Position numbers and translations under genes: made by a program
Origin: an uncultured Gammaproteobacteria bacterium
Lineage (GTDB): Bacteria; Pseudomonadota; Gammaproteobacteria; JAADHQ01
Reading direction: 5' to 3'
Assembly (NCBI GenBank): GCA_947258755.1
Contig: CAMYJO010000021.1
Location: 1-64,000, forward strand
DNA: 64,000 bases
Notes under the pieces: generated by a model
What the model saw: only the letters and a program-made list of their open reading frames with translations
Databases searched by the model: none
What the model was told of the DNA's origin: nothing
In this document: piece after piece, positions 2,338-58,262 of the stretch
Numbering within the stretch: the first letter of the stretch is position 1
Layout: every line of letters begins with the position of its first letter

Positions 2338-2591
2338 TTAGCACGAACACTCGAACAAAAAACAATCACCCATTACCCTTATTGCCCTCTGTGGGAGCGG
2401 CCCTTGGCCGCGATAAAACAGTAGCGGGTAGCTAGTGGCTAGTAGCGAGGTAAAATAGAATCCGTATCCTGGTCTTTTTCTAGCCACTTGCCACTCGTTA
2501 CTAGTTACTTGAATGTCGCGGCCAAGGGCGCGCTCCTACACGGGAAAATTGCATGATTGATTCTCTTCGTGTCTTCGTGCCTTCGTGGTGA
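2338..2591. repeat. Nested palindromic repeat, copy A (complete, outer left arm degenerate)
   Basis: Outer arms gcacgaacactcgaac / cttcgtgccttcgtggtga; middle arms gtgggagcggcccttggccgcgataaaa / tgtcgcggccaagggcgcgctcctaca; inner arms gtagcgggtagctagtggctag / ctagccacttgccactcgttac. Confidence 0.85.
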
Positions 2592-7910: not shown

Positions 7911-9086
7911 GTGAAACATATTACCAAAACCGCCTTATTCCTGTTTCAGTTTATCGCCATCGGACTCGCCGCTGCCTTTGTCATCCTGATCCTGAAACCT
8001 GAATTACTGAACAACATACGCCCCAAGGTTGAAATTCGCCAGCATGCGCCGACTGCGGTCGAGCACAACGTCACCCATAGCAATCCTACTGCGCCATTCT
8101 CGTATGCCACTGCCGTGCAACTGGCCGCGCCCTCGGTCGTCAATATCTACACCAGCAAGCTGGTGGCCAGACAACCCTCGGCCGAAGACCTGCTCAGACA
8201 TTACTTTAATGGCACAACCCCGGAAAGCTCGTCTGTGGAAACCAGTCTCGGCTCCGGCGTCATTATGACGCCGCAGGGACACATTATTACCAACAACCAC
8301 GTTATTTCGGGTGCCACAGAAATTCAGATATTATTGAATGATGGTAGGTCAGCCAGCGCGCAGATCGTCGGCAAAGACCCGGAAACTGACCTGGCCATTC
8401 TGAAAACCGACCTCGACTCTCTGCCTGTAATAACAGTAGGCGGATCAGACAAGCTGCAGGTGGGTGATGTGACCCTCGCTATTGGCAATCCCTATGGTGT
8501 CGGTCAAACCGTAACCCAAGGCATCGTCAGCGCAACCGGACGTAAACGCCTGGGCCTGAATACCTTTGAAAATTTCATCCAGACCGATGCCGCGATTAAT
8601 CCGGGTAATTCCGGCGGCGCACTGATCAACCCTCGTGGTGAACTAATCGGTATCAATTCCGCCATCTTCAGTAAAAGCGGCGGCTCACAGGGGATTGGTT
8701 TTGCGATACCGATAAACCTGGCACGCAAGGTCATGACAGAAATCATTGAAAAAGGTCATGTCGTGCGTGGTTGGCTTGGCGTACGCCTGCGTGATTTACC
8801 TGCTAATATTGCCCAAGGTCTGAATCTTCCGACACCGGGCGGCGTTATCGTCACCGGCCTGTTCGAGCATGGACCTGCATTGAATGCCGGACTGCAAGCC
8901 GGAGATATCCTGGTCAGTGTTAACAATCAAGCTATCCTGGATGCGCGCAGCCTGCTCGACGCAGTCGCCAAACAACCACCCGGCAGCATCATCGAACTCC
9001 AGGGCCAGCGTGATCAGCAAAAATTCAAAGCGAATATAGAGGTAACCCAGAGACCGGTGATGACTTATCGGAATTTACGCCGATAA
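7911..9086 (+). CDS. DegS/AlgW-type trypsin-like serine protease with one PDZ domain
   Basis: N-terminal TM anchor, SGVIMTPQGHIITNNHVI, TDAAINPGNSGGALIN, one C-terminal PDZ; length 391 aa. GTG start. Confidence 0.9.
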   Translation: MKHITKTALFLFQFIAIGLAAAFVILILKPELLNNIRPKVEIRQHAPTAVEHNVTHSNPTAPFSYATAVQLAAPSVVNIYTSKLVARQPSAEDLLRHYFNGTTPESSSVETSLGSGVIMTPQGHIITNNHVISGATEIQILLNDGRSASAQIVGKDPETDLAILKTDLDSLPVITVGGSDKLQVGDVTLAIGNPYGVGQTVTQGIVSATGRKRLGLNTFENFIQTDAAINPGNSGGALINPRGELIGINSAIFSKSGGSQGIGFAIPINLARKVMTEIIEKGHVVRGWLGVRLRDLPANIAQGLNLPTPGGVIVTGLFEHGPALNAGLQAGDILVSVNNQAILDARSLLDAVAKQPPGSIIELQGQRDQQKFKANIEVTQRPVMTYRNLRR

Positions 9087-9097
9087 ACAGCATATGA

Positions 9098-9348
9098 TCA
9101 CCACGAAGACACGAAGAAAAAAATACTCATTACGTCCCTGTAGGAGCGGCCCTTGGCCGCGATAAAAAAACAGTAGCGAGGGACGAGTGGCTAGTAGCTA
9201 GTAGCTAGAAAAATACCAGGATATTGGATCTGTTTAACCTAGCTACTAGCTACTAGCTACTAGCAACCCGCTACTATTTTATCGCGGCCAAGGGCCGCTC
9301 CTACAGCGTTAAAATGGGTGTTTGTTTTTCTTCGTGCCTTCGTGGTGA
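9098..9348. repeat. Nested palindromic repeat, copy B (best-preserved)
   Basis: Outer arms tcaccacgaagacacgaag / cttcgtgccttcgtggtga; perfect 30-bp middle arms ctgtaggagcggcccttggccgcgataaaa (9138-9167) / complement at 9277-9306; inner arms based on repeated CTAGTAG units. Confidence 0.92.
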
Positions 9349-9403
9349 ATACCAAGGCTAAAGAACTAAGCTGCCAAGAATACCTTCATACTAAACTCAA
9401 TAC

Positions 9404-10480
9404 TTAAAATCCATTTACAATCTCGATGAACTTGTCATTTTCTTCCGGCTTACCGACCGTCACCCGCAGGCAGTCCTGCAATAGACCACCCGCATTAGCA
9501 AGGTTCTTGATCAACACGCCACCAGACTTTAGCGCCTCAAATAAGGCGTTGGCACGACCATCACTAACACGGATCAGGATAAAGTTGGCTTCACTGGGAT
9601 AGACCGTCAGTCCTTTTATCGACATGAGCTGTGCATACAATCGACTACGTTCCTGCCTTATCAAATCGGTCTGCTGATCAAGCACGTCTTTGTGGCGTAA
9701 TGCAAACTCGGCGCTGACCTGGGTCAACACATTGATGTTGTAAGGCAGGCGTATCTTATCGAATTCCTGCAGTATGTCTGCAGGACCAGCAAGGTAACCG
9801 AGACGCAGGCCGGCCAGACCCATCTTCGAGACGGTACGCATCACCAATAAATTCGGATATTGCCCGAGGTTGGACATGAAACTGTCATCGGCAAAGGCGG
9901 CGTAGGCCTCATCGAGGACGACCAGGCCCGGAGCCAGGGTTAAAATTTCTTCGACTTGCTCACGTGCAAACATATTGCCGGTCGGATTATTCGGATAGGC
10001 CAGAAAAATGATCGCCGGTTTGTGTTCTGTAATCGCCGCCTTCATCGCCGCCATATCAAGGCTAAAATCATCCGCATGCAGAGGCACACCGACATACTGC
10101 ATACCGACAAAACGCGCGATCATGTTATACATGACAAAGCCCGGCTCCGGTGCCAGGATAACCCGATCCTTCGCAGCCACAGCCATGGCAATAATCTGGA
10201 TGATCTCATCCGAGCCATTACCGAGCATGACACTCATGCCGTCAGGAATAGCAAAGGCCGTGCGTATCTGCTGCTGTAATGAGCGGCTGCCCGGATCCGG
10301 ATAACGGTTCAGGGCCGTATCTTGCAATAAGGCCTGCCACTCCGTGATCATTTGCTGCGGCCAGGTATAGGGATTTTCCATAGCATCCAGTTTTATCATG
10401 TTCCCGGGATCAGGTACATGGTAGGCGGACAGCGCCTGTATTTCCGGGCGTATCCATTGTTTGATGAGTTTATTGGTCAT
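9404..10480 (-). CDS. hisC: Histidinol-phosphate aminotransferase
   Basis: LGNGSDEIIQIIAMA, AYPNNPTGNMF, class II aminotransferase; adjacent to hisD/hisG. Confidence 0.94.
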   Translation of the reverse strand: MTNKLIKQWIRPEIQALSAYHVPDPGNMIKLDAMENPYTWPQQMITEWQALLQDTALNRYPDPGSRSLQQQIRTAFAIPDGMSVMLGNGSDEIIQIIAMAVAAKDRVILAPEPGFVMYNMIARFVGMQYVGVPLHADDFSLDMAAMKAAITEHKPAIIFLAYPNNPTGNMFAREQVEEILTLAPGLVVLDEAYAAFADDSFMSNLGQYPNLLVMRTVSKMGLAGLRLGYLAGPADILQEFDKIRLPYNINVLTQVSAEFALRHKDVLDQQTDLIRQERSRLYAQLMSIKGLTVYPSEANFILIRVSDGRANALFEALKSGGVLIKNLANAGGLLQDCLRVTVGKPEENDKFIEIVNGF

Positions 10481-33170: not shown

Positions 33171-33201
33171 TTCACAACGAAGACACGAAGAAAAGCAGAT
33201 A
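33171..33201. repeat. Isolated left outer half-arm of the nested palindrome family
   Basis: ttcacaacgaagacacgaagaaaagcagata matches the left outer arm of copy B (accacgaagacacgaagaaaaaaata). Confidence 0.7.
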
Positions 33202-40379: not shown

Positions 40380-40397
40380 CTTCGTGCCTTCGTGGAA
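40380..40397. repeat. Isolated right outer half-arm of the nested palindrome family
   Basis: cttcgtgccttcgtggaa matches the right outer arm of copies A and B (cttcgtgccttcgtggtga). Confidence 0.7.
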
Positions 40398-58129: not shown

Positions 58130-58262
58130 TTAAAATCAGGGTAAAGATAATAGTAGCGGGTTGCTAGTGGCTAGTGGCGAGGTAAAACAGAACCCAGGAC
58201 ATAGTCTTTTTCTAGCCACTAGCTACTCGTCACTCGCTACTATTATCTTCACCCTGACTTTA
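58130..58262. repeat. Nested palindrome family, copy C (inner core only, inside a different stem)
   Basis: Inner core gtagcgggttgctagtggctagtggcgaggtaaaa...ctttttctagccactagctactcgtcactcgctac, closed by stem tcagggtaaagataatagtagcg / cgctactattatcttcaccctga. Confidence 0.85.

What the first reader, a model, noticed from the sequence alone, without database searches (positions are those of the whole stretch)
9098..9348. A 251-bp concentric palindrome built from three different inverted-repeat families (copy B)
The interval between convergent protease and hisC genes is almost wholly occupied by three inverted repeats, one inside the other. The outer arms are tcaccacgaagacacgaag / cttcgtgccttcgtggtga. 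The middle arms are a perfect 30-bp match (ctgtaggagcggcccttggccgcgataaaa, 9138-9167 and 9277-9306). The inner arms are made of CTAGTAG units. The middle arm resembles the general look of REP/BIME palindromes known from Pseudomonas. Layered insertion of elements into each other, or one composite mobile hairpin, would explain the structure. It could act as a bidirectional terminator or attenuator, a structured RNA, or a transposase substrate.
Basis: partly seen in the sequence, partly recalled or inferred. Interest (0 to 1): 0.68.

Follow-up and report, generated by a model that had tools for sequence, protein, structure and literature searches.

The report
Mobile REP hairpin nested in repeats
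The 251-base palindrome is a known kind of tiny mobile hairpin (a REPIN: two facing REP repeats) whose middle is a second repeat made of 7-base units and which sits inside a third repeat made of 8-base units; it shows how bacterial intergenic repeats nest in each other and is a new variant of something known.

Summary
Window 9098-9348 is three nested inverted repeats filling the gap between convergent protease and hisC genes (fold z = -21). Each layer is a separate dispersed family. The 30-bp middle arms are GTAG-type REPs: the strict pattern has 88 copies in this genome, and a RAYT transposase gene (NF047646, 140 bits, cut-off 80) is flanked by variants of the same REP. The inner arms are tandem GTNGCKA heptads, found at about 60 places; at least 28 lie between two outward-tagged REPs, most with a homologous 100-104 bp spacer, so REP-heptad-REP (~150 bp) is a REPIN lineage. 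The outer CACGAAG octad arms form a rare third family; four of its six strict loci lie beside a REPIN. Layering by insertion is supported by orthologous sites: a sister species' hisC gap lacks all three layers, and other REPINs have REP-free counterparts. Unexpected: heptad inverted repeats without REPs are old. 19 of 24 in sister G003 have a counterpart at the orthologous site here, usually at a stop codon, with arms no more complementary to each other than to other elements' arms. Mobility and RAYT action are inferred. New variant of a known kind.

The parts
9098..9116 (+). outer arm, left: two-unit octad repeat TCACCACGAAGACACGAAG (pairing extends to 9126)
9330..9348 (-). outer arm, right: CTTCGTGCCTTCGTGGTGA (pairing starts at 9320)
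9138..9306 (.). REPIN: two REPs in inverted orientation, GTAG tags outside, with heptad spacer; the repeated unit
9140..9162 (+). REP, left: GTAG-GA-GCGGCC-CTT-GGCCGC-GA
9282..9304 (-). REP, right, same sequence on the other strand
9163..9281 (-). spacer = heptad inverted repeat, 119 bp (standard length 100-104); one extra heptad in each arm and one arm end altered to match the other
9167..9208 (+). inner arm, left (heptads GTNGCKA)
9239..9280 (-). inner arm, right (heptads)
9209..9238 (.). loop of the inner hairpin; homologous to the loop of the other REPIN copies
2391..2539 (.). copy A: REPIN of the same lineage (spacer 2414-2515), lying in an octad pair (2565-2587 clear, about 2341-2361 degenerate)
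58146..58247 (+). heptad inverted repeat of the same family without REPs
7911..9086 (+). flanking gene: trypsin/PDZ serine protease
9404..10480 (-). flanking gene: hisC-like aminotransferase

Best explanation
The core (9138-9306) is a REPIN: two GTAG-type REPs facing each other with a structured spacer, which spread through this genome as a unit, most likely mobilised in trans by the genome's RAYT (IS200/IS605-like) transposase acting on the single-stranded hairpin. Its spacer is a captured inverted repeat made of 7-base units. The REPIN then landed in the loop of an inverted repeat made of CACGAAG octads in the protease-hisC gap, giving three concentric palindromes. Shown by sequence: families, copy numbers, fixed spacing, the RAYT gene and its REPs, REP-free orthologous sites in sister species. 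Inferred: that RAYT moves it, the order of the layers at this very site, and a preference for palindromes as targets.
For: 88 strict REPs with 0 for the reversed control pattern (control given there). 52 neighbouring REP pairs with GTAG outside, 11 inside, 1 tandem; 27 of the 52 have gaps of 100-104 bp. The spacers are homologous. RAYT at G000:C22:37138-37590 scores 140 bits for NF047646 (cut-off 80) and is flanked on both sides by REPs. Among four genomes of the genus only G000 and G002 have a close RAYT (100%, 63%; others <=29%), and REP counts by a looser pattern are 96, 19, 3 and 0 for G000, G002, G001, G003. REP stems vary in compensating pairs: GGCC/GGCC, GGTC/GACC, GACC/GGTC, GAGC/GCTC. 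The orthologous protease-hisC gap in G003 has none of the layers. REP-free orthologues exist for the REPIN at C4:27524-27669 (G003 L103) and for the G002 REPIN in L308 (G000 C4:51489 and G003 L110). Four of six strict octad loci lie beside a REPIN; rough chance 2e-5 if 12% of the genome is open to both (assumed fraction).
Against: The REPs around the RAYT gene are the GGTC/GACC and GACC/GGTC stem types, whereas copy B has the commonest GGCC type, so the cognate pairing is not exact. No excision or insertion event was observed. No clean empty site exists for copy B itself: G003's gap is unrelated sequence of similar length. Only four genomes were held for the genus and order.
Confidence: 0.82

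Rival explanations
1. The whole 251 bp, octads included, is one composite mobile element that moved as a unit; copies A and B are two insertions of it.
For: Copies A and B have all three layers 6.7 kb apart, and the stretch between octad arm and REP is alike in A-left and B-right (score reached by 0 of 500 shuffles).
Against: At least 28 REPINs were found with two REPs but only four have any octad arm nearby. Octad pairs occur without REPs, here at C44 and in G003 with other loops.
Confidence: 0.12
2. The palindrome is kept by selection as a bidirectional transcription end or RNA-stabilising hairpin between the convergent genes; mobility is secondary.
For: Very stable fold; 18 of 40 REP-associated places lie between convergent genes by a simple ORF call; published REPs favour such sites (PMC3733652).
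Against: No intrinsic terminator at 9000-9450; the orthologous gap in G003 has no such structure.
Confidence: 0.2
3. The layers grew in place by fold-back copying (one arm templating the other) rather than by insertion of separate elements.
For: In copy B one spacer end was altered to match the other arm and each arm gained a heptad, which fits arm-to-arm templating.
Against: All three layers are dispersed families with copies elsewhere, and the arms of other heptad elements pair no better with each other than with arms of other loci.
Confidence: 0.07

Closest known systems
REPINs of Pseudomonas fluorescens SBW25 (Bertels & Rainey 2011, PMC3116915)
   Same: Inverted REP doublet, fixed spacing, hairpin-forming spacer, RAYT gene with neighbouring REPs in the same genome.
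   Different: Spacing is longer (100-104 bp between REPs) and the spacer is itself a member of another, REP-independent repeat family built of heptads.
GTAG-1 REP family, HH dimers (Di Nocera et al. 2013, PMC3733652)
   Same: GTAG/GTGG tag, unpaired GA before the stem, conserved 3-base motif on the other side, HH dimers with conserved structured spacers. That paper also reports REP dimers lying inside long palindromes (Anabaena variabilis, Halothiobacillus neapolitanus).
   Different: The surrounding palindrome here is an octad-repeat pair that also exists without REPs; in A. variabilis and H. neapolitanus empty target palindromes were not found.
Heptameric GGGAATC repeats of Xanthomonas (Rehm et al. 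2015, PMC4692102)
   Same: Tandem 7-base units in intergenic regions, with 70-75 convergent pairs forming inverted repeats; most kept between related species.
   Different: Another unit (GTNGCKA), no GGG tract for G-quadruplexes, arms kept imperfect, and use as a REPIN spacer.

Membership tests
REPIN | Two REPs in inverted orientation | tested here: met
   9140-9162 + and 9282-9304 -; 52 HH against 11 TT and 1 HT neighbour pairs
REPIN | Preferred spacing and conserved spacer across dispersed copies | tested here: met
   27 of 52 HH gaps are 100-104 bp, spacers homologous; copy B itself is 119 bp
REPIN | Unit can form one long hairpin | tested here: met
   copy B third most stable per nt of 37
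REPIN | RAYT gene with flanking REPs in the same genome | tested here: met
REPIN | REPs at the RAYT identical to those of the unit | tested here: inconclusive
   same family, different compensating stem pairs
REPIN | Excision or transposition seen | not testable with these tools
   no reads or strains available
GTAG-1 REP | GTAG/GTRG tag, unpaired dinucleotide, stem-loop, 3-base motif | tested here: met
   GTAG-GA-GCGGCC-CTT-GGCCGC-GAT read directly, definition from PMC3733652
BIME-2 (tandem REP arrays) | Several alternating REPs in a row at this site | tested here: not met
   one doublet only at 9138-9306
Intrinsic terminator | GC hairpin followed by T run | tested here: not met
Heptameric tandem repeats (Xanthomonas / cyanobacterial type) | Tandem 7-base units in intergenic DNA, some in inverted pairs | tested here: met
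Heptameric tandem repeats (Xanthomonas type) | G-tract able to form G-quadruplexes | tested here: not met
   unit GTNGCKA has no GGG

The most novel reading that the evidence does not exclude
Heptad inverted repeats are their own class of intergenic element: kept at orthologous sites across species, mostly right at a stop codon and often filling the gap between codirectional genes, built on a period-7 skeleton T-N-G-C-N-A-G whose arms are kept imperfectly complementary, present in distant phyla, and in this genus captured as the cargo of a REPIN.
Probability: 0.3. Interest if true: 0.62.

Novelty: new variant of a known kind. Interest (0 to 1): 0.4.

Why it matters
It gives a readable case of how mobile hairpins nest. 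A REPIN lineage carries a spacer taken from an independent, positionally conserved repeat family, and REPINs sit in or beside other palindromes with REP-free counterparts in sister species. The presence of RAYT and REP abundance agree in the four genomes at hand. The heptad elements, conserved at stop codons while their loops diverge, raise a testable question about intercistronic repeats.

Tried and rejected
Rfam: three sub-threshold eukaryotic matches only, taken as chance. Terminator and promoter scan: nothing. RNAalifold on 20 spacers: weak covariation, 2 of 19 pairs with double changes. Arm-pairing permutation test, expected to show hairpin selection, did not: own arms paired no better than foreign arms. 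A wider idea that all heptads here share a final AG (also ATACAAG, GGTAAAG) was noticed but not tested statistically. An empty structure given to the count of structure pairs returned an error. Papers searched for the octad and heptad words held none for them.

Full report
Observation. The three nested inverted repeats are present at the stated coordinates. The segment folds to -167.2 kcal/mol, z = -20.9 against shuffles. It fills the gap between a protease gene and hisC, which converge.

Middle layer. The 30-bp arm holds a REP of the form GTAG-GA-GCGGCC-CTT-GGCCGC-GAT, matching the published GTAG-1 description (PMC3733652). The strict pattern gives 88 copies in the genome and none for the reversed control. 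With up to two substitutions 127 were found in the DNA I held, which was chosen around repeats, so this is not a genome total. Of neighbouring pairs within 250 bp, 52 have the tags outside, 11 inside, 1 tandem. Tag-outside gaps cluster at 9-24 bp (13) and 100-104 bp (27). A Y1 transposase gene at C22:37138-37590 meets the NCBI REP-associated transposase model (140 bits, cut-off 80) and has REPs on both sides. In the four genomes of the genus, which is also the whole order in the collection, a close RAYT is found only in G000 and G002 (63%), and REPs number 96, 19, 3, 0 in G000, G002, G001, G003. Four genomes make this a consistent pattern, not a statistical proof.

Inner layer. The spacers of the 100-104 bp doublets are homologous. 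A model built from 20 of them found 114 matches on both strands, which I grouped into 60 places. At least 28 have a REP on both sides; by a looser rule (one REP within 60 bp) 40 are REP-associated and 20 are not. The REP-free ones have unrelated loops of 15-95 bp, and two lie between tRNA genes. Copy B's spacer is 119 bp: one extra heptad in each arm, and one arm end changed so that it matches the other, which is why its REP arms match over a full 30 bp.

Outer layer. Strict octad pairs or single arms occur at six loci here and six in G003. Several enclose unrelated loops of roughly 100-200 bp. Four of the six here are beside a REPIN. The chance estimate of 2e-5 assumes 40 REPINs and 12% of the genome open to insertion; both numbers are assumptions. 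Copies A and B also resemble each other between octad and REP, so part of that count may reflect one event copied locally.

Layering. In G003 the orthologous protease-hisC gap has none of the layers and is unrelated sequence, so copy B is species-specific, but this is not a clean empty site. Cleaner comparisons exist elsewhere: G000 C4:27524-27669 carries a REPIN beside a terminator-like hairpin where G003 has none, and G002 L308 carries a REPIN next to a heptad arm where G000 C4:51489 and G003 L110 have only the heptad repeat. At C22:39836 a REPIN lies next to a heptad remnant whose orthologue in G003 holds another palindromic repeat in its loop.

Heptad elements without REPs. Of 24 distinct heptad places in G003, 19 map to a heptad place at the orthologous site in G000; the other five are one REPIN site and four without a flank match in the DNA I held. 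By a simple ORF call, 14 of 20 REP-free elements here lie between codirectional genes, and most start within about 20 bp of the facing stop codon, while REP-associated ones lie farther away. Arms of one element pair no better with each other than with arms of other elements: 4107, 4609 and 4989 of 5000 permutations were as good in three sets. That speaks against selection for a precise hairpin and would fit removal of perfect palindromes, an inference only. The word AGTRGCKA in triplicate also appears in many phyla, without a matched control.

Verdict. A REPIN with a captured heptad spacer, most likely inserted in an octad repeat. Families, copy numbers, spacing and orthologous absences are tool results; movement by RAYT and target preference are inferred.

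Noticed in passing
L031 (C12:89562-89891) and L032 (C18:293-619): Two further Y1 transposases without these REPs, flanked instead by repeated AACAATTGTTTCTCTGACCCGGGTTT-like and GTAAGACCTGACCCCGTGATTC-like sequences.
   Followed up: no
L253:14748-14801 and flanks of several REPINs (e.g. L039, L008): A second heptad family (ATACAAG / ATTAAAG / GGTAAAG, or TTGTACC on the other strand) near REPINs.
   Followed up: partly
L303 (G003:C24:10547): A heptad inverted repeat whose loop holds yet another palindromic repeat (CATTGCGAGGAG...CTGCGCTCGCAATGAC).
   Followed up: partly
L122 (G000:C31:245-371 and 447-559), L104 (G001): Heptad inverted repeats between tRNA genes, at the same place in two species.
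   Followed up: partly
L011 (C3:73668-73779): Long run of CTAGTGG heptads directly beside a REP doublet, and an opposite run at 73990-74023.
   Followed up: no
window 33176-33190 and 40380-40394: Single octad arms without a clear partner.
   Followed up: no
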